Assembly: GCA_937925565.1 (NCBI GenBank)
Contig: CALALM010000137.1
Location: 1 to 15,575 of the forward strand
Source of the DNA: an uncultured Centipeda sp.
GTDB taxonomy: Bacteria; Bacillota; Negativicutes; Selenomonadales; Selenomonadaceae
Direction: 5' to 3'
DNA length: 15,575 nucleotides
The notes beneath the pieces are model-generated. The model worked only from the letters and a program-made list of their open reading frames with translations, was not told the DNA's origin and ran no database searches. Of the stretch, positions 7,471 to 15,575 are shown piece by piece. The translations under genes were made by a program, and so were the position numbers. How positions within the stretch are numbered: the stretch's first letter is position 1; each line of letters opens with the position of its first letter.

Positions 7471-8481
7471 ATGAAACTGTTTCCGAAGAAATACGCCCGT
7501 GGTGCTCTGCTTAGTCTTTTGGCACTGAGCTTTGCAGGGAATGTGTTTGCAAGTGAGCAGACAACCGCACCAACCAAAGAAGAAACGAATGTCAAGAAAC
7601 TCTCGCAGGAAGTCACGGAGCTGCGCGGCAGCATAAGTGAGGTAACGGAATCACAGGCGTCTATCCTGCGTATTCTGGATGCACTTTCAGCGCAGCTTGA
7701 GACCATCCAGAGGGATCAGGAGTTCCGGCGCACGGCGATTCCTGCGCCGACGGATCGACAGCTTGTCAACCCGGACAACTCCTATCGCTCCATCAATACC
7801 ACGCAGGATGCGATCAATGCGCAGGGCAATTCGACAATGGTGTTCACCTATGCCCCCGAACAGCTCTATAAGATTTACTGCCGTCCGGGGTATATCACCG
7901 ATCTTGCGCTTAGAAAGGGCGAGACGATTAAGTTCGTCGGCGGCGGAGATACGGCGGCATGGCAGCTCGATCAGTCCGTAGTGGACGGTGTTCCCCATCT
8001 CTACGTCAAACCGGTGGTAAAGACATCGACAACAAACCTCATCATCACCACGGAAAAGCGGAGCTATCAGCTCATCTTGAACGCAAGTGACTGGTACAAT
8101 CCGATGGTCTATTGGACGTATGGAACAGAAGACCATGCGGACATGATGCGTCGTCATGAGCAGGAAGATCGTCTGCGCACGGGCAGCGTGAATGCGACGA
8201 GCGTTGAAAATCTCGACTTTTCCTTTCAGGTGAAGACGAAAGGCGAAGCGAAAGACTATGTGCCGGACATGGTGTTTTCCGATGGCACACGAACCTATTT
8301 GAAATATAAGACACTGCCCAAGCAGCAAGTGCCGCTCTTTATTACCGAGCGCGGCAAGAAGACTATGACGCTCGTGAATTATCACACACGCGACGGCTAC
8401 TACATCGTCGATCTTCCGTTTGACAAGGCACAGCTGCGCGTTTCCGACCGCAGCATGGTGACGATCACGCATAAGGGGTGA
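7471..8481 (+). CDS. virB9: VirB9/TrbG-like type IV secretion outer-membrane complex protein
   Basis: This 336-aa periplasmic protein with a signal peptide (residues 1-27, likely cut after V-F-A) forms the outer-membrane core ring with VirB10. Residues of about 40-90 are a heptad-like coiled coil (KKLSQEVTELRGSISEV). The N-terminal VirB9 domain follows: YAPEQLYKIYCRPGYITDL, then LRKGETIKFVGGGD and TAAWQLD. The C-terminal VirB9 domain has DMVFSDGTRTYLKYK and YYIVDLPFDKAQLRV, both characteristic. An ATG at 7456 overlaps the ribosome binding site GGAGG (7458-7462). The ATG at 7471 has proper spacing and puts the signal peptide at the N terminus, so I chose it. It is separated from virB8 by the palindrome gap. 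Confidence 0.9.
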   Translation: MKLFPKKYARGALLSLLALSFAGNVFASEQTTAPTKEETNVKKLSQEVTELRGSISEVTESQASILRILDALSAQLETIQRDQEFRRTAIPAPTDRQLVNPDNSYRSINTTQDAINAQGNSTMVFTYAPEQLYKIYCRPGYITDLALRKGETIKFVGGGDTAAWQLDQSVVDGVPHLYVKPVVKTSTTNLIITTEKRSYQLILNASDWYNPMVYWTYGTEDHADMMRRHEQEDRLRTGSVNATSVENLDFSFQVKTKGEAKDYVPDMVFSDGTRTYLKYKTLPKQQVPLFITERGKKTMTLVNYHTRDGYYIVDLPFDKAQLRVSDRSMVTITHKG

Positions 8482-8485
8482 TGGC

Positions 8486-9832
8486 ATGGCAGGATTCAAC
8501 CCGCAAAGCATCGGCAGATATCTTGCCGATTTCAAAACCTTTTTCAGCCGTAACAGGCGTAAGCGATCGGATGAGGACGATGCGGATCTTGAGATCGAGG
8601 ATGAGACGCAGGAAAATCCCGGCGATGTGAAAATGAACAGCGGACAGCACCGTAATGTATACGGCATCCGCAAGAAGATTATCGGCGGTATCATTGCGTT
8701 TGGTGTTCTGGTGTTCATTGGGAGCTATTACATCTCCAAGCCGGACACACCGACCGATCAGCCCGCGCGCATCCCCGCACAGAGACTTGCGGCAGAGACA
8801 CGTGAACCGGCACACACCAATGAGGATCGAAAAGAACTTTCCTATGCCGATCTCCAAACATTGGATGCAGGGCGCACCAAAAAGGCAAACGCACAGGCAG
8901 CACCGGGTGCAGACGGCAGACCCGCAGGAAGTGGGGCGGCAAATCCGCCGGGAGCGGTCACCGTTCAGCAGATTCCAACACCAAGCCTTCCGTCCGCAGC
9001 CCCGGACGCAGCCTATCCGATACCACACCCCAATATCCCACCGACACCCGTTTCTGCAGATGTGAATGCGAATGCGGGCACAGAGATAGAATCCGAGCAT
9101 GAGCGTGCGGAAAAGGAGCTTGAAGCGCGTTACCACTCGGCAATCGCGTTTGCTCTTGGCGGCGGCGCAGGGGCAGATACGGCAGCAGCGGAAAGTGCTG
9201 CTGCGGGAGACATATCGGACAGCAACACCGTCCAAACGGCAGCACGCGCCTCGTATGATACAAGCAGTCCGTACATCCTTCAGGTCGGTACAATGATCCC
9301 TGCGATGCTGTTCTCGGGAATTAACACCGATACGCCGGGGCAGGTCATCGCACAGATCAGCCGTGATGTCTATGACAGCGCAACCGAGACGAACCTGCTC
9401 ATCCCATCGGGGACACGCCTCATCGGGACGTATCAGAGCGAGGGGGCAGCAAACGGGCGCATTGCCATCTCCTTTGCAACGATGATTTTGCCGAGCGGCG
9501 CAGCCTACAACATCGGCGGCAGCATGGTCGCCGTGGATGACAGTGGATATAGCGGAATTACCGGCAAGGTACATCGCCATCTGGATCGTGCGTTCAGTGC
9601 GGGGCTTCTCACCAGTGCCATCGCTGCACTCGGCTCGTATGCAAGTGGGGACTCCTCGTCGCAGCGCAGCTTTACGGGCGGACAGCTCATGATGCAGGGA
9701 GCGATGAGCAATGTGCTGAACTCCGTTTCGCAGATTGTACGCGACAGTACATCGACACGTCCGACCATCACCATTGAACCCGGTTACACATTCCATGTCT
9801 ATGTAACACAGCCCATCTCATTCGGAGGATAA
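8486..9832 (+). CDS. virB10: VirB10/TrbI-like type IV secretion core protein
   Basis: This 448-aa protein spans inner and outer membranes and is the scaffold of the secretion channel. The layout is typical: a basic and acidic cytoplasmic N terminus, a transmembrane helix at about 65-83, a Pro-, Ala- and Gln-rich periplasmic linker (about 85-215), and the C-terminal TrbI/VirB10 beta-barrel domain from about 260. The barrel shows LQVGTMIPAMLFSGINTDTPG, then IPSGTRLIGTYQS and a conserved ending TFHVYVTQPISFGG. The region LSSYASGDSSSQ-like at about 385-400 matches the helical antenna part of the fold. It starts four bases after virB9 and ends one base before the virD4 ATG, whose ribosome binding site lies inside its last codons. 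Confidence 0.92.
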   Translation: MAGFNPQSIGRYLADFKTFFSRNRRKRSDEDDADLEIEDETQENPGDVKMNSGQHRNVYGIRKKIIGGIIAFGVLVFIGSYYISKPDTPTDQPARIPAQRLAAETREPAHTNEDRKELSYADLQTLDAGRTKKANAQAAPGADGRPAGSGAANPPGAVTVQQIPTPSLPSAAPDAAYPIPHPNIPPTPVSADVNANAGTEIESEHERAEKELEARYHSAIAFALGGGAGADTAAAESAAAGDISDSNTVQTAARASYDTSSPYILQVGTMIPAMLFSGINTDTPGQVIAQISRDVYDSATETNLLIPSGTRLIGTYQSEGAANGRIAISFATMILPSGAAYNIGGSMVAVDDSGYSGITGKVHRHLDRAFSAGLLTSAIAALGSYASGDSSSQRSFTGGQLMMQGAMSNVLNSVSQIVRDSTSTRPTITIEPGYTFHVYVTQPISFGG

Positions 9833-9833
9833 T

Positions 9834-12257
9834 ATGAACGAGCAGGAAAAGAAAGAACAGAACAAAACGCTTTTCCTCTGCCTCTTGTTCGCGGGGATCA
9901 CCTATGTTGCTGCGCAGTGGCTCACAACACAGGCAATCGCCGATCATCTCGAATATAGTCCACTCCTGCCCGGCGAGATCGCCGGGCATATTTATCAGCC
10001 GTTTGCACATCGGACGTGGAGAGATGATCCGCAAATTGCCGCAGCGATTCCGCGCACACTTGCGCAATATGCGTTTTTGCCGTGGATTGTCTATCTTGTC
10101 GGCGGACTTGTGATCTACCAATTCCACAAAAGCCGTCAGCGCATGACAAGCCACGGCACAGCAGATTTTGCAAAGGAAAAGGACATCAAAGAGGCTGGAC
10201 TTGCGATCCGCGAAAACGGATTCGTCGTCGGAATCAACCCTTTTAGCGAAAAACTCATGCTGCACAACGGTCCGGAACACATCTTACTCGTTGCACCGAC
10301 GCGAAGCGGCAAGGGTGTCTGCAACATGATCCCGACAGGAATCTGCTGGAAGCACAGCATATTCTTCTTCGATCCAAAAGCGGAACTTTGGAACTTTACC
10401 GCAGGATGGCGCAAGAAGCACTTTGGGCAGAAGGTCATGAAATTTGAGCCGCTCTGTAAGGACGGCTCTGCGGCAAAGTGGAATCCGTTCGCAGAGATCG
10501 ACTTTCAGTCCTTTGAGGAACTCACCGATGTTTCGACCATCTCGGAGATGATGGTCAAAACAGGGGACGGAGGAAGCAAAGACCCCTTCTGGGAGAACTC
10601 TGCCGCAGCTCTCATCAACGGTGTTATCCTGCATCTCCTCTACAAGCACTATCAGGAGAAGCGCCTCCTTCCATGTCCGTCCGACGTAATGAGCTTTCTC
10701 TCCTCGCCCGGCATGAGCACGGACAAGCTCTTTGCGTCTATGAAAATCTATCCGCACATCTCCAAGGAGGAGTTTTTGGAGCAGAACGGCAAGAAAAATA
10801 TGCTCAAGGAGATTTACGGCGAGTATGTGGAGGATTTTCGCCCCTATAGGGAAGTCCTGCCCCGATTTTCCGAGGCAGTTGCAGCGAATGAGGAGCGCGC
10901 AAAGGCACATGAGGAAGCCTTGCAGGAGGGCAGACACGCAAAGCCGCCCAAGAGCAATCTGGAACTTTTGCGCGAGGCAATCATTGCTGCGGAGGAGGCG
11001 GGAGAAACGATTGATTTTAACGCGCCCGATTTGTCCGAATGCACACAGAAGCAGGACATCGACCAGATGATCAGCGGGCAGGATGTGACTTCCCCGTGGT
11101 ACAAACTCCTCGTGCACCCGAAGGTCGCCGAAGCCGCTGCCAATATGTATAACGGCGCGGAACAGACACGCGCCTCCATCATGCAGACGGCGCAGACTTC
11201 AATGGCAGTCTATCAAGACCCGCTCGTCAAAGCCAATACGGCGGTATCGGATTTCTCGCTGCGCGATCTGCTCGACCCGTCACAGGAAGTGTCGCTCTAT
11301 CTCGTCCTTCAACCCAACGACATTGACAAGCTGCGCCCAATCCTGCGCCTCTTTGTCAACACGATGCTCTCCAAACTCGTCCGTGATATGAAGTTCGCCT
11401 CGGATGGCGAAAAAGAGAAAAAAAAGCAGCGTCTTCTCCTCATGCTCGATGAGTTCCCGCAGCTCGGGAAACTCGAGAGCATCGAAAAGACGCTTGCCAT
11501 CTGCGCGGGCTACGGCGTCAAAATCTGCATTGTTGCGCAGAGCATGGGACAGCTCAATAAGATCTACACCAAGGACAATGCCATTCCCGGCAACTGTCAT
11601 GTGCAGATCTACTTCACACCGACCCTTGAAGACGGAGGTGGAACGGCAAAGACCCTTTCTGACACCCTCGGGGATCAGACCATATACTCCTATTCCAAGT
11701 CCTCAAACGGGAAGATGTTTGAGGGATCAACATCAACCTCGCAGATGGCGCGTAAACTCATGACCCCGGACGAGGTGCGGCGTATGCCCGCCGATCGTGA
11801 ACTCGTCTTTGTTGCGGGCTTCCGACCGATCTACGGAAAGAAACTCTTTTATTTCAAGCAGAAATTCTTCACCGACCGCACCAAGACACCACCGCCGACC
11901 TTCAGCGACCTGCGTACGGAGGTCAAATCCTACGCCCAGCTCTTTGCCGTCCATCGTGCGGATCGTGCAGCCGCCGAGGAACGGCTGCGCGAGGTGCAGG
12001 AGGCACGCGCGGCGGCAATGACAGCGTCACCCGTGCCCATAGAGGAGATACCGATTCGATTGGAGGAATACGATGAACCGGCAGCCAAAGAAAATCCCAC
12101 GGCTCTCGGACAAGATGAAACGTGGGATGAAGCAGCTGCAAATGCAGCCAGGGACGAAGACACACAGCCCCAAGACGCGGAAGAGATGACCTTTGAACAG
12201 AAAAAGAAGCTGCTTCTTGCAAAGAGGAGAGGAGAAGGAGAACACGATGGAACGTGA
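9834..12257 (+). CDS. virD4: VirD4/TraG-type coupling protein (T4SS DNA-recruiting ATPase)
   Basis: This 807-aa hexameric ATPase docks the relaxase-DNA complex to the secretion channel. Two transmembrane helices lie near residues 12-30 and 78-95. Next comes the TraG hallmark RQRMTSHGTADFA (residues 101-113), in the cytoplasmic approach to the motor. Walker A is APTRSGKGV (residues 154-162) and Walker B is LLLMLDEFPQLGK (about 533-545). A charged insert at about 340-420, with helices rich in Glu and Lys, may be the all-alpha substrate-binding domain. The last 80 or so residues are acidic and probably flexible, as in proteins that bind relaxosome partners. GGAGG precedes the ATG. Its end overlaps virB11 by 11 bases. 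Confidence 0.93.
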   Translation: MNEQEKKEQNKTLFLCLLFAGITYVAAQWLTTQAIADHLEYSPLLPGEIAGHIYQPFAHRTWRDDPQIAAAIPRTLAQYAFLPWIVYLVGGLVIYQFHKSRQRMTSHGTADFAKEKDIKEAGLAIRENGFVVGINPFSEKLMLHNGPEHILLVAPTRSGKGVCNMIPTGICWKHSIFFFDPKAELWNFTAGWRKKHFGQKVMKFEPLCKDGSAAKWNPFAEIDFQSFEELTDVSTISEMMVKTGDGGSKDPFWENSAAALINGVILHLLYKHYQEKRLLPCPSDVMSFLSSPGMSTDKLFASMKIYPHISKEEFLEQNGKKNMLKEIYGEYVEDFRPYREVLPRFSEAVAANEERAKAHEEALQEGRHAKPPKSNLELLREAIIAAEEAGETIDFNAPDLSECTQKQDIDQMISGQDVTSPWYKLLVHPKVAEAAANMYNGAEQTRASIMQTAQTSMAVYQDPLVKANTAVSDFSLRDLLDPSQEVSLYLVLQPNDIDKLRPILRLFVNTMLSKLVRDMKFASDGEKEKKKQRLLLMLDEFPQLGKLESIEKTLAICAGYGVKICIVAQSMGQLNKIYTKDNAIPGNCHVQIYFTPTLEDGGGTAKTLSDTLGDQTIYSYSKSSNGKMFEGSTSTSQMARKLMTPDEVRRMPADRELVFVAGFRPIYGKKLFYFKQKFFTDRTKTPPPTFSDLRTEVKSYAQLFAVHRADRAAAEERLREVQEARAAAMTASPVPIEEIPIRLEEYDEPAAKENPTALGQDETWDEAAANAARDEDTQPQDAEEMTFEQKKKLLLAKRRGEGEHDGT

Positions 12258-13224
12258 GGACAAAGTTTATGAGCGCCACCTGCAAATGCTGGAGCACAAC
12301 ATGGGGCGCAGCATCATGCACTATATGCACGATGACAACGTGACCGAGGTCATTGTCAATCCGGACGGAAAGCTCTGGATTGACACATTCGACAAGGGCT
12401 TTCAGGATACAGGCGTTGTTATGGAAGCAGAGGACACCAAGCGTATCATTTACGCCGTTGCCGATCTTGCAGGACAGGTCATTGACGTAAAGAATGATCC
12501 TGCGCTGCAAGCCCATATCCCGGAGTCGCGGCTTTTTGCCAACTGCCGCTTTCAGGGGCTTCTGCCGATGATTGTCGAAGCTCCCAGCTTCAACATCCGA
12601 AAACATGCCAAAAAAATCCTCACGCTGGACGAATATGTGGCACAGGGCACAATGAGCAAACGTCAGCGTGAGGTAATTCTGGAAGCGATTCATGGAAAGA
12701 AAAACATCATCGTCGCGGGCGGCACAGGATCGGGCAAGACCACACTCGTCAACGCCGTGCTCGCCGAAATCTCCAAACTGGACGAGCGCATTGTGACCAT
12801 CGAGGATACAAGGGAACTCAAGTGCAGCGCAGAGAACTTTGTTGCCCTCAATACCACGGACAGCGTGGACATGGACAATCTGCTCCGCAAGACGCTGCGT
12901 CTCTCACCGAACCGCATCGTCGTCGGTGAGATACGCGGCAAAGAGGCACTCACCCTGATCGACGCATGGTCAACGGGACACAGAGGCGGCTGCTCTACCG
13001 TCCACAGCGACAGTGCGATGGACACGCTCTATCGACTGGAAGACCTCGTAAGCCGTGTCTCCATCTCTGCACAGCAAGCGGGAATTGCGCGTGCTATTGA
13101 TGTTGTGATCTACATCGCAAAGCGTGCCATTCGGCGCGGCATCGAGGAAGTTCTCTCCATCGATGGCTGGGATCGCGAGCGGCACGAGTACATCACACAT
13201 CGTTTGGATGGGGCTGCGGGTTGA
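12247..13224 (+). CDS. virB11: VirB11/TrbB-type secretion ATPase
   Basis: This 325-aa cytoplasmic hexameric ATPase of the type IV secretion system (VirB11/TrbB, GspE superfamily) powers channel assembly or substrate switching. The N-terminal domain holds VTEVIVNPDGKLWID. The C-terminal motor has Walker A GGTGSGKTT (about residue 159), the Asp box IVTIEDTRELK, Walker B IVVGEIRG and the His box GHRGGCSTVHS. All are intact. In-frame codons back to an ATG at 12193 exist inside virD4, but the purine-rich GGAGAAGGAG just before 12247 supports the shorter form. It is the last recognisable secretion gene of this cluster. VirB4 and VirB6 are not in the window. Confidence 0.93.
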   Translation: MEREDKVYERHLQMLEHNMGRSIMHYMHDDNVTEVIVNPDGKLWIDTFDKGFQDTGVVMEAEDTKRIIYAVADLAGQVIDVKNDPALQAHIPESRLFANCRFQGLLPMIVEAPSFNIRKHAKKILTLDEYVAQGTMSKRQREVILEAIHGKKNIIVAGGTGSGKTTLVNAVLAEISKLDERIVTIEDTRELKCSAENFVALNTTDSVDMDNLLRKTLRLSPNRIVVGEIRGKEALTLIDAWSTGHRGGCSTVHSDSAMDTLYRLEDLVSRVSISAQQAGIARAIDVVIYIAKRAIRRGIEEVLSIDGWDRERHEYITHRLDGAAG

Positions 13225-13426
13225 TGAAAATATAAAAGACCACGGCTTTCCGACTCCCGCCGGGGTCCAATTCCTCATGGCAGCCGGAAAGCGTGGTCGC
13301 AGAGAAGTTCTCACGCGTTACACGAACTATGCTGTGGTGTCGCAAGCAATTCCTCAATTATTTTCAGTATACAGGGCAGCCCCATCGCCGTCAATAGTTG
13401 AACACGAAATATTAACATGGAATTAG
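13208..13426 (+). CDS. possible 72-aa ORF filling the virB11 to polyvalent gene gap (uncertain)
   Basis: An ATG inside the end of virB11 opens 72 codons (MGLRVDENIKDHGFPTPAG...) that stop just before the ribosome binding site of the next gene. It fills the gap neatly, but it has no good ribosome binding site of its own. It runs through a long inverted repeat, and its codon use in the second half is more AT-rich than that of neighbours. It is also exactly antisense to the predicted minus-strand RNA. I do not recognise it. Chance or a decayed gene is as likely as a real one. Confidence 0.2.
   Translation: MGLRVDENIKDHGFPTPAGVQFLMAAGKRGRREVLTRYTNYAVVSQAIPQLFSVYRAAPSPSIVEHEILTWN
13227..13298 (-). 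terminator. intrinsic terminator for minus-strand transcription
   Basis: On the minus strand the arm GACCACGCTTTCCG (13298-13285) pairs with CGGAAAGCCGTGGTC (13252-13238) in two 7-bp blocks with one bulged C. A T-rich run, TTTTATATTTT (13237-13227), follows at once. The loop is long (32 bases) and may fold further. On the + strand the same stem is not followed by T residues, so the direction is clear. It ends three bases past the virB11 stop. It fits a small RNA made from the promoter at 13394-13366. Confidence 0.6.
13229..13359 (-). ncRNA. predicted small RNA of about 130 nt, minus strand
   Basis: A good promoter (13394-13366) and an intrinsic terminator (13298-13227) on the minus strand enclose a transcript of about 130 nt, the ends being estimates. 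The RNA holds the 10-base motif TGAGGAATTG twice. One copy is near the 5' end (minus 13356-13347) and the other is in the large loop of the terminator stem (minus 13277-13268). A short stem, GAGA with UCUC, lies between them. No open frame of note is on this strand. It is antisense to any transcript running from virB11 into the polyvalent gene and could act there, or bind a protein or other mRNAs through the GGA-containing loops. No known RNA family was recognised. Confidence 0.5.
13366..13394 (-). promoter_or_regulatory. sigma-70-type promoter on minus strand
   Basis: Read on the minus strand, TTGACG (13394-13389) is followed after exactly 17 bases by TATACT (13371-13366). Both hexamers differ from consensus at one position. 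Upstream on the same strand the sequence is AT-rich (13395-13415), as for an UP element. There is no minus-strand gene downstream, but a terminator lies about 130 bases away. Transcription is predicted to start near 13359. Confidence 0.65.
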
Positions 13427-13438
13427 GAGGTGAGCGCT

Positions 13439-15575
13439 ATGAGGGACAGTCTTCAAGAGCTTTTAGGGGAAGACAGCGCAGCCGTTTATCAAAGAGTGCG
13501 ACAGGAGCTTGCTGCGGGAAATGAAAAAGTTGCTGCGGCGGCAAGTGTGGGCGCGGCACTCTTCGCCCTGCACGCAGCCGCATGGGCAGAGCGCGAATCA
13601 CGCACAGCGGGAAGAACAGTCACGGCACCGGATTATTATAACAGCGTCGTCATTGATGCGAAAGGCGAGGTACGGGAAGGAGCGCTCAATGCACTAAGGG
13701 CAGGTGTCGATCTCAATGATATGGTTCCGGTCGTGGACATATCGGCTGCGCTGCCGCAAAAGAAACTGTCGAACAAGGATGTGTTGAACTTTATTCGCGG
13801 ATTGGTGAAACAACAGAACACGGCATTGTCTGCGGACGGACAGGCGGTATTCAGCATTTTGCCGAAAGATGTACGGCATATTACCTATTCAAGCAACAAG
13901 AGAGCGACCGCTTCGGAAAGAAAGGTGAGAGAGGCAAGCATTTTTTCGATTGACAGTCTCTTGGAAAATGCAGTTCTCATAGAGAGCATTCCCAATCGAA
14001 AAACAACGAAAAAACCCAATGTGCGTGCGTATCATCGGTTTTATGTACCCGTACAGGCAAATGGAAAAATGCGTACTGTCCGCCTCGTTGCAGAGGAACA
14101 GAACGGCGCAGTGACTTTGAATCCGACAGATGTCAACCTATATGATGTAATCATAGAAAAAAAGACCCCTCGCCCCCTAGCAGGAATCTCACCTGTGATA
14201 GGGACGGCGGGAAGCCTTTATAAAATCAGTATACGCGAAATGCTCTCCGGTGTCAAGGATACCGACGGCAATTCTTACTGTCAGATTGCATGGCATGGAT
14301 CGGACGCAATTTTTGATGAGTTCTCTATGGATGCCGTTGGTTCGGCAAAAAATGGCTCAGCGAATGGATACGGCATATACCTTGCGCTCAACCGAGAGCT
14401 TGCGGAAGCGTATCGGACAAAAGCCTTATATATGGTCGATATCGTTGGTGACAGTATTTTGCGCGATGCGCTTCCATTTCAAGAGCAGCATCCGTTGGTG
14501 CAGCAAAGCCTCCTTGAAATCGCAGAGAATTGGAGCAGCGTGAAGCATGGCAAAGCGAATGCGGGGGAAATCTTACAGACGATGAACGGTGAAGACATCT
14601 ATGGTCGAATCCTGTCTGAGATTCAGGCAGCACACGGCAAAGAGGAAATCACCGATGAAATACATAAGCTGGCATCGGAACAGCTCTATGAATATGGAAT
14701 CATGGGAAGAGAAGTCTGCAACTGGAATGAGCCTGTTATCGTGTATTACACAGAACCGGACATTGTGGCGCGATACCAACACAAGGAAGCGCAGGTGCAA
14801 GGGCAGTTTTCTGTCCTGAACGAAGGAAGCCGCCTCGTTTCCCTCTTTGAAGAAGCGGACGAAAGCACCTTTCTGCATGAAATGGCGCATATCTTTTACG
14901 ACGATATGGAGCGGCTTGCACCGCGCGACGTGGAGACCTTCAAGGATCTTGCCGCTGTGGAGCGGTGGGCGGCGTGGCATGAGGGAGCTGCCGATGAATA
15001 CAGGGGAACGCCGTGGGAAAAGGAGTTTGCAGCGCGTGAAGCTGCTATTTTGACCGCGCAGAGAAATGGGGACGTTAAAGAGGAGAAATCTCTCATGGAA
15101 GAATGGAGGCACGAGCGTTTTGCGAGAGGGTTCGAGATCTATATCAAGGAGGGCAAAGCACCCACGGACAAGCTCGCATCCATTTTTGAAAAAGGAAAGA
15201 AATTTCTTCGTTCTGTCTACTATGGATTTACGGATAATGGTGGTCGGGCGAGTGCCGAAGTTGAGGCTGTTATGGCGAAACTTATTACGATACCGGAGCA
15301 GCGTTCTCTAAAATATACAGAGGCATTGCCCCCTGCCGAGCAGATATTTCTCGAGGAAAAAGAAAACCTTCTAGCGCAGCATAAGAAGTGGAATCCGGTG
15401 TATACCGTCCGCACGGCACAGAAAATGGCAGAGAAGGGGATGCGTACAGAGGAGATTGCGCGTGCGCTTCAAAAACACGCCCCCGACATTCAAAACCTCC
15501 CGAGTGCTGCTCTTCGGCAAAACGCGGCTGCGCGCATCGCGAAATCCGCAGCTGGGAGCGTACGCGTGGGGCAGC
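13439..15575 (+). CDS. polyvalent protein with ADP-ribosyltransferase and zincin peptidase domains, 3' end outside window
   Basis: One frame of at least 712 codons runs without a stop to the window end. AGGAGGTGA just upstream sets the ATG. Residues 1-60 are helical and Ala-rich. Residues of about 113-245 resemble large-polyvalent-protein-associated (LPD) or BECR-nuclease-like domains (ERKVREASIFSIDSLLENA, then AYHRFYVPVQANGK). Residues of about 283-440 form an ADP-ribosyltransferase-like domain: WHGS (His286), GYGIYLA (Tyr314), then ASEQLYEYGIMGREV and NEPVIVYY (Glu431), an H-Y-E set. Residues of about 475-620 form a zincin with HEMAH (His480, Glu481, His484) and a likely third ligand in HERFARGFEIYIKEGKAP (Glu559 or Glu566), a pattern of polyvalent metallopeptidases. 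Such proteins, known from phages and conjugative elements, are thought to enter the new host with the DNA. Later domains lie beyond the window. Confidence 0.85.
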   Translation, partial: MRDSLQELLGEDSAAVYQRVRQELAAGNEKVAAAASVGAALFALHAAAWAERESRTAGRTVTAPDYYNSVVIDAKGEVREGALNALRAGVDLNDMVPVVDISAALPQKKLSNKDVLNFIRGLVKQQNTALSADGQAVFSILPKDVRHITYSSNKRATASERKVREASIFSIDSLLENAVLIESIPNRKTTKKPNVRAYHRFYVPVQANGKMRTVRLVAEEQNGAVTLNPTDVNLYDVIIEKKTPRPLAGISPVIGTAGSLYKISIREMLSGVKDTDGNSYCQIAWHGSDAIFDEFSMDAVGSAKNGSANGYGIYLALNRELAEAYRTKALYMVDIVGDSILRDALPFQEQHPLVQQSLLEIAENWSSVKHGKANAGEILQTMNGEDIYGRILSEIQAAHGKEEITDEIHKLASEQLYEYGIMGREVCNWNEPVIVYYTEPDIVARYQHKEAQVQGQFSVLNEGSRLVSLFEEADESTFLHEMAHIFYDDMERLAPRDVETFKDLAAVERWAAWHEGAADEYRGTPWEKEFAAREAAILTAQRNGDVKEEKSLMEEWRHERFARGFEIYIKEGKAPTDKLASIFEKGKKFLRSVYYGFTDNGGRASAEVEAVMAKLITIPEQRSLKYTEALPPAEQIFLEEKENLLAQHKKWNPVYTVRTAQKMAEKGMRTEEIARALQKHAPDIQNLPSAALRQNAAARIAKSAAGSVRVGQ

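What the first reader, a model, noticed from the sequence alone, without database searches (positions are those of the whole stretch)
13227..13394. Predicted minus-strand small RNA between virB11 and the polyvalent gene
Every gene in the window is on the + strand, yet the largest gap holds a near-consensus minus-strand promoter (TTGACG, 17-base spacer, TATACT) and, about 130 bases on, a 14-bp stem followed by TTTTATATTTT on the same strand. No minus-strand gene is served. This is the layout of an independent small RNA, possibly a counter-transcript that tunes expression of the polyvalent gene or of the element as a whole. The promoter and terminator are read directly; the RNA and its role are inference.
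Basis: partly seen in the sequence, partly recalled or inferred. Interest (0 to 1): 0.75.

Follow-up and report, generated by a model that had tools for sequence, protein, structure and literature searches.

The report
Antisense small-RNA genes in polyvalent genes
The predicted small RNA is probably real: it looks like a stray copy of an apparently undescribed family of tiny RNA genes that in relatives sits backwards inside the genes for large effector proteins of mobile DNA, and may keep those proteins in check.

Summary
In detail: minus-strand TTGACG-17-TATACT, a 14-bp stem with a conserved cap, then TTTTATATTTT, in the largest gap. The hairpin is no local oddity. Its 24-nt apical core recurs in Selenomonadaceae with different but complementary stems (8 of 17 pairs doubly changed in 7 sequences). 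A covariance model built without the window finds it at E 4e-11.

In relatives the unit lies antisense inside polyvalent genes, just after the MuF_C (predicted RNase) domain. Of 26 MuF_C loci, 17 have an antisense promoter of at least 9/12 with a 17-nt spacer 60-83 nt past the domain end (0-2 in every other bin). Antisense folding beats synonymous-codon shuffles mainly there (mean z -2.75). LPD3 domains show a like pattern, and the window carries such a second unit inside its polyvalent gene (14157-14256). Orphan copies and arrays persist without MuF_C.

Best reading: antisense RNAs that silence effector-domain mRNAs; the window copy is an orphan acting in trans. Transcription and mechanism are inferred. 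Weak point: the window's promoter lies outside the segment that its closest protein-level relatives share. No Rfam match; no report among the papers that nine searches listed. A new variant of cis-antisense RNA.

The parts
13389..13394 (-). -35 hexamer TTGACG of unit 1
13366..13371 (-). -10 hexamer TATACT of unit 1 (spacer 17)
13232..13359 (-). predicted transcript of unit 1 (start about 7 nt past the -10; inferred)
   Evidence: inference
13238..13298 (-). capped terminator hairpin of unit 1
   Evidence: (E 4.2e-11, model without the window)
13257..13280 (.). 24-nt apical core shared by the Selenomonadaceae copies (one substitution here)
13227..13237 (-). T-run TTTTATATTTT
13207..13217 (.). 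left arm of a perfect 11-bp inverted repeat around unit 1
   Evidence: 15 of 2000 mononucleotide shuffles hold one
13376..13386 (.). right arm of the same inverted repeat, inside the promoter spacer
13208..13426 (+). open frame P0001 over the gap; keeps the AGVQF motif of the MuF_C end (remnant or rival small protein)
12238..13224 (+). virB11-like ATPase gene
   Evidence: T2SSE
13439..15575 (+). polyvalent gene (runs off the window): LPD3; ART-PolyVal only below its cut-off
13775..14104 (+). LPD3 domain of the polyvalent gene
14251..14256 (-). -35 TTGACA of unit 2, antisense within the polyvalent gene
14228..14233 (-). -10 TATACT of unit 2 (spacer 17, 11/12)
14161..14219 (-). hairpin of unit 2
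14157..14163 (-). T7 run of unit 2

Best explanation
The element is an orphan member of a family of short RNA genes: a sigma-70-type promoter, a short leader, and a long hairpin with a conserved cap that doubles as terminator (estimated length about 75 nt in most members, about 128 nt here). In relatives the gene is nested antisense in polyvalent genes of mobile elements, directly after an effector domain (MuF_C, a predicted RNase; also LPD3). The most likely action is antisense: the capped loop starts pairing with mRNA of polyvalent genes that hold the same segment, lowering their expression in the cell that already carries the element. The window copy has no MuF_C beside it and would act in trans, through its cap, on other elements. 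Shown by computation: family, structure, position, promoter enrichment. Inferred: transcription, pairing, silencing, immunity. Rough odds: the family is a real RNA 0.85; the window copy is transcribed 0.65; the antisense mechanism 0.5.
For: Independent covariance match of the window, 47 bits, E 4.2e-11. Covariation on the 7 of 14 copies that share one stem register: 8 of 17 pairs changed on both sides, 95.8% of cells paired, 0 of 500 shuffles as high on four of five measures; slid controls 0-1 such pairs. Of 14 core copies, 12 have a promoter of at least 10/12; in 11 of them the -10 ends 34-38 nt before the core, in the window 91 nt; 2 (L094, L097) have none. Of 26 MuF_C loci, 17 have an antisense promoter of at least 9/12 (spacer 17) at 60-83 nt from the domain end, 0-2 in any other bin; synonymous shuffles reach it in 11.9%. 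Antisense fold z is -2.75 in the window -30..+60 (n = 26), sense -2.03; antisense folds better in 20 of 26. LPD3: 9 of 14 loci with a promoter at 108-120 nt, hairpin z -2.45 at +30. All 11 copies in G142 and G143 have promoters of at least 10/12, 10-14 nt before the hairpin, several where the MuF_C frame is broken or gone. Of 13 genomes with hairpin hits at E <= 1e-6, 7 show no PF18819 match at E <= 0.001.
Against: No transcript has been seen. The window's promoter lies in sequence not shared with P0004-P0006, which diverge after about 13348, and its -10 is 91 nt rather than 34-38 nt from the core. The window's apical stem has one mismatch, and the number of pair types in the covariation test is not above shuffles (141 of 500). 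L094, L097, G041 and G043 hairpins have no promoter. In L093 the core is inverted relative to its promoter, so that RNA would be sense, not antisense. MuF_C loci L136, L140 and L142 show no convincing unit; L137 has a hairpin (z -5.3) but no promoter at the usual place (best one 225 nt away); L143 has the hairpin without the promoter; the L120 hairpin is not significant, 49 of 300 shuffles. Promoter P values of many MuF_C loci are only 0.02-0.17. T-runs coincide with lysine codons (NKKK), so they may be coding. Unit 2 of the window is not the lowest point of its own gene in a sliding scan. Unit 1's RNA starts about 70 nt short of the polyvalent ribosome-binding site.
Confidence: 0.5

Rival explanations
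1. RNA antidote: the capped hairpin binds the effector domain itself (MuF_C is a predicted RNase) and inhibits the injected protein, as type III antitoxin RNAs do. Orphans would then be RNA immunity genes.
For: Cap and internal loop are near invariant while stems vary, also in copies without coding constraint; PBECR/MuF-C is a predicted RNase or RNA-binding domain (PMC5512222 section 19); orphans in genomes without a PF18819 match.
Against: LPD3, not known to me as an RNase (recalled), carries units too. Outside the core group caps differ and, by eye, follow the coding motif. Nothing on binding.
Confidence: 0.2
2. Counter-transcript acting in cis: unit 1 tunes read-through from virB11 into the polyvalent gene.
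For: It lies between the two genes and is antisense to the intergenic part of their mRNA.
Against: Its predicted 5' end lies about 70 nt upstream of the ribosome-binding site; G028, with the nearest polyvalent homologue found (62%), gives no family hit in the 20 kb around it (L144); virB11 relatives lack it.
Confidence: 0.13
3. Inert relic: a piece of a MuF_C gene end left behind virB11, its hairpin kept by recent descent only.
For: The frame still reads AGVQF; the promoter is not shared with the closest relatives; spacing is off.
Against: Stem intact; 47 of 51 residues shared with P0004, and by eye P0005 is unchanged from VDENIKD to VVSQA beside a diverged virB11 end.
Confidence: 0.17
4. A DNA-level element: a palindrome that marks effector-cassette borders for recombination, or only a bidirectional terminator.
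For: Units sit at domain ends; L094 and L097 are promoterless hairpins with T-runs on both sides; L093 core inverted.
Against: Promoter enrichment at a fixed place and better folding of the antisense strand (20 of 26) are not needed by a DNA site.
Confidence: 0.1
5. P0001 is a real small protein and conservation is coding.
For: Open frame, relatives P0004-P0006.
Against: No Pfam match; ends differ from the relatives after about 13348; compensatory pairs; by eye no clear ribosome-binding site before 13208.
Confidence: 0.05

Closest known systems
STnc6030, antisense RNA of prophage BTP1 (PMC7067206; passages read)
   Same: Antisense RNA encoded in a mobile element's late gene for a putative DNA-injection protein; excludes the same phage, by base pairing as its authors propose.
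   Different: 786 nt predicted, one phage; here about 75-130 nt, one terminator hairpin, recurrent at domain ends (promoter evidence in Negativicutes and kin, hairpins also in an Opitutaceae plasmid and in Escherichia and Pasteurella phages), with orphans.
Type I toxin-antitoxin antisense RNAs (general knowledge; PMC6563280 and PMC7699646 seen in a search listing only)
   Same: Antisense to an effector gene of a mobile element, own promoter and terminator.
   Different: Targets are inner segments of very large genes, not small hydrophobic toxins; neutralisation untested.
Plasmid counter-transcript RNAs such as CopA and RNAI (recalled)
   Same: Short, one or few hairpins, loop-first pairing expected.
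   Different: Those control replication or primer RNAs; no rep gene at this place.
AgvB/AsxR and Pas prophage sRNAs (PMC4104026 passages; PMC13192938 outline, passages and sections 15 and 17)
   Same: Short prophage sRNAs; AgvB and AsxR share conserved 3' regions.
   Different: They lie elsewhere in lambdoid prophages (moron site; near holin/lysozyme genes); no Rfam model matched the phage loci here.
Orphan immunity genes of polymorphic toxins (recalled)
   Same: Immunity left behind without its toxin, in arrays.
   Different: RNA instead of protein; function untested.

Membership tests
Intrinsically terminated small-RNA gene | promoter, stable hairpin, T-run on the same strand | tested here: met
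Intrinsically terminated small-RNA gene | transcript observed | not testable with these tools
   no expression data
MuF_C/LPD3 antisense hairpin family (defined here) | hairpin and cap matched by a model built without the window | tested here: met
   E 4.2e-11
MuF_C/LPD3 antisense hairpin family (defined here) | -10 element 34-38 nt before the core | tested here: not met
   91 nt in the window
MuF_C/LPD3 antisense hairpin family (defined here) | lies antisense just after MuF_C or LPD3 | tested here: not met
   unit 1 follows virB11 (orphan); unit 2 does meet it
Type I toxin-antitoxin | antisense RNA overlapping the toxin gene | tested here: inconclusive
   layout met for relatives and unit 2, not for unit 1; no RNA seen
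Type I toxin-antitoxin | RNA neutralises a toxin | not testable with these tools
   -
Type III toxin-antitoxin | direct repeats of an RNA upstream of and co-transcribed with the toxin gene (definition recalled) | tested here: not met
   antisense units with their own promoters
Plasmid counter-transcript RNA | antisense to a rep gene or leader (definition recalled) | tested here: not met
   neighbours are virB11 and a polyvalent gene
Any Rfam 15 family | match at gathering score | tested here: not met
   window 0; relaxed searches gave only matches far below gathering score or none

The most novel reading that the evidence does not exclude
Effector domains of polyvalent proteins travel as cassettes that each carry, on the opposite strand at their 3' end, a small RNA gene acting as antidote. 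When a domain is replaced the RNA gene stays behind, alone or in arrays, as an RNA counterpart of orphan immunity genes, protecting the host element against effectors of related phages and conjugative elements.
Probability: 0.35. Interest if true: 0.93.

Novelty: new variant of a known kind. Interest (0 to 1): 0.78.

Why it matters
Polyvalent proteins are large effectors that phages and conjugative elements are thought to send in with their DNA (PMC5512222); I know of no general account of how the producing cell keeps them in check (not searched for as such). A recurrent antisense RNA gene at domain ends, seen in two domain families and, as a hairpin, in Escherichia and Pasteurella phages, would be one. 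It can be tested in laboratory E. coli. It also means that a peptide pattern in these proteins (S/T-I-x6-V-K) may be only the shadow of a promoter.

Tried and rejected
Rejected or empty: Rfam. Viral contigs for virB11, MuF_C and the core (no relative). The L091 unit in plasmids (nothing). Window 8000-15575 in phages by DNA (nothing) and P0003 in phages (nothing). The window's genome is not held. Window 12200-14500 against plasmids gave 245 records; the 20 listed match trbB only. The unbiased unit scan with a lax rule (score of at least 9, spacers 16-18) gave 28 units against 13.9 expected from synonymous shuffles and is noisy; the 12 that score 11/12 with a 17-nt spacer lie in frames that I take as polyvalent: 4 after MuF_C, the others after LPD3 or assigned by eye.

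Rows dropped before the 26-locus counts: L117, L119, L122, L123, L125 (domain match truncated, broken or weak), out of 28 places; L141, L142 and L143 were added. L113 was kept for the region after its domain, although its domain match holds one stop. For L142 and L143 I moved the domain end 24 nt upstream to match the others. For LPD3, 14 of 20 places have at least 50 codons open after the domain; two of them (L175, L185) are near-identical.

Literature: nine searches (open-licence PMC only) listed 1 to 15 papers each; judged by titles and abstract starts none is about an antisense RNA in MuF_C or polyvalent genes. In PMC5512222 the terms antisense, small RNA and promoter do not occur.

Full report
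The observation. The minus strand of the 214-bp gap between virB11 and the polyvalent gene reads TTGACG (13394-13389), 17 nt, TATACT (13371-13366), and about 67 nt further a 14-bp stem with one bulge, then TTTTATATTTT. The stem is far from chance (z -4.06, 0 of 200 shuffles). The promoter alone is not: about 2.4% for a 10/12 site in 150 nt.

A family, not a local oddity. Searching 189 Selenomonadaceae genomes with the gap DNA (up to 4 candidates scored in most) gave nine places at E < 0.001, all within the hairpin (query 57-102). An exact 18-nt core pattern occurred 10 times in 8 genomes, with no hit for the reversed control pattern. The copies share the 24-nt cap (CCGCCGGGGTCCAATTCCCCATGG on the + side, with few changes) but have different, complementary stems. 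On the seven of 14 copies with a common register, 8 of 17 pairs changed on both sides, 95.8% of cells are paired, and the covariation score (0.395) was not reached in 500 shuffles; the number of pair types was (141 of 500); sliding the partner leaves 0-1 doubly changed pairs. On 18 copies without the window, 11 of 15 RNAalifold pairs have at least one double change, and the model made from them scores the window 47 bits, E 4.2e-11. Rfam has no match at its thresholds.

Where relatives carry it. In L090, L091, L092 and (with broken frames) L098 the unit lies antisense in a polyvalent gene directly after MuF_C (PF18819); in L100 it follows an LPD3 fragment. MuF_C is a PBECR domain, a predicted RNase (PMC5512222, section 19). 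The antisense strand has TTGACA-17-TATACT (or near) ending 35-38 nt before the cap in 10 copies, with one more in the opposite orientation (L093, spacer 18, 34 nt); L094 and L097 have none; the window has 91 nt.

Diverged MuF_C genes have it too. The 26 usable MuF_C loci come from Negativicutes (the class of G002), one genome of another class of that phylum, an Acinetobacter plasmid and an Opitutaceae plasmid. Of these, 17 have an antisense promoter of at least 9/12 with a 17-nt spacer 60-83 nt from the domain end; each other 24-nt bin from -228 to +275 has 0-2, and synonymous-codon shuffles reach it in 11.9%. Seven loci have P <= 0.01 on their own, the rest more. Antisense folding energy against synonymous shuffles averages z -2.75 in the window -30..+60, -1.68 in the next, and between -0.73 and +0.71 elsewhere; the sense strand gives -2.03. 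The antisense strand folds better than the sense in 20 of 26. Exceptions: L136, L140 and L142 have no convincing unit; L137 has a hairpin (z -5.3 at 0) but its best promoter is 225 nt away; L143 has the hairpin (3 of 200 shuffles) without the promoter; the L120 hairpin is not significant (49 of 300). In two Escherichia phages and a Pasteurella phage the MuF_C segment is followed by a similar antisense hairpin and T-run (z -1.83, -2.55, -4.94); in PhiR12_3 the domain end was set by default and a later stretch folds better still (z -4.0), and their promoter scores (8, 8 and 9 of 12) are not significant. Part of the PhiR5_2 segment is in 419 of 5426 E. coli genomes, but only 9 hold 80% or more of the query.

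A second unit in the window. TTGACA-17-TATACT at 14256-14228 on the minus strand, one of the two 11/12 sites of the window, is followed by a hairpin (14219-14161) and T7, inside the polyvalent gene just after LPD3. The promoter is rare among synonymous shuffles (P 0.001) but the fold is modest (z -1.9, 6 of 200), and in a sliding scan of the gene other places score lower (z -2.4 at aa 290, about -1 here). The homologues in G028 and G142 give z -3.8 and -3.3 (0 of 200 each). In an LPD3 survey of 81 genomes (20 places, 14 usable) the promoter sits 108-120 nt past the domain end in 9 of 14 and the hairpin peak is z -2.45 at +30. In 13 peptides that I picked from MuF_C and LPD3 loci, 11 read S/T-I-x6-V-K/N at that place and 2 I-V-x6-V-K. 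It is what AGTATA-N17-TGTCAA encodes, so I read it as a promoter's shadow (inference).

Orphans. G027 holds a unit with TTGACA-16-AATACT, a long stem and T5, and no open frame through it on the opposite strand was printed; G142 has seven copies (five in one array) and G143 four, all 11 with promoters of at least 10/12 placed 10-14 nt before the hairpin, several where the MuF_C frame is broken or gone. Of the 13 genomes with strong hits, 7 show no PF18819 match at E <= 0.001, though G143 keeps MuF_C-like end fragments. G041 and G043 hairpins lack promoters. So the RNA unit seems to outlast the protein domain. Unit 1 of the window looks like such an orphan: it begins where the MuF_C reading frame would give NKKKA (window: ENIKD), directly after virB11, with an 11-bp inverted repeat around it.

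Results against my reading. The closest relatives of the gap's open frame, P0004-P0006 in the protein database, agree with it up to about 13348 (47 of 51 residues for P0004) and then diverge, so the window's promoter is not shared. I had no DNA for them and could not test theirs. The window's apical stem has one broken pair. L093 carries the cap the other way round. T-runs may follow from lysine codons. No expression data exist here.

How it may work. Antisense pairing started by the exposed cap loop, then duplex formation and cleavage of effector mRNA, is the simplest mechanism for an RNA that is antisense to its gene; the invariant cap would let an orphan act on other elements. A prophage antisense RNA against a DNA-injection gene that excludes the same phage is a precedent (STnc6030, PMC7067206, passages read). 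Binding to the effector protein is the main rival. A DNA-level cassette border and an inert relic remain open for unit 1.

Known or new. Nine searches of the open-licence library listed no paper that, by title or abstract start, treats such RNAs. The kind (cis-antisense sRNA of mobile elements) is known; the recurrent place at effector-domain ends, the cap family and the orphan arrays look new.

Noticed in passing
window 14157-14256: A second antisense promoter-hairpin-T-run unit inside the polyvalent gene after LPD3; not mentioned in the finding.
   Followed up: yes
L095 9648-10802 (G142) and L096 9777-10749 (G143): Arrays of five and four such RNA units beside fragments related to the window's polyvalent protein.
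   Followed up: partly
L093 about 9970-10085 (G037): Free-standing unit whose cap is inverted relative to promoter and stem, as if flipped within the palindrome.
   Followed up: partly
L160 and L161 (G041, G043): Near-identical promoterless hairpins in a similar unidentified context in two genomes.
   Followed up: no
L001 6970-8140: Downstream of virB11 the Selenomonas bovis relative has other cargo: a small ORF and a HipA-like ORF (by eye, not tested), so the place after virB11 is variable.
   Followed up: no
L094 13104-13163 and L097 9941-10000: Cap-bearing bidirectional terminator-like hairpins without a promoter, outside any polyvalent gene seen.
   Followed up: partly
window 13268-13277 and 13347-13356: Exact 10-nt direct repeat CAATTCCTCA: the predicted RNA leader repeats part of its own cap.
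   Followed up: no
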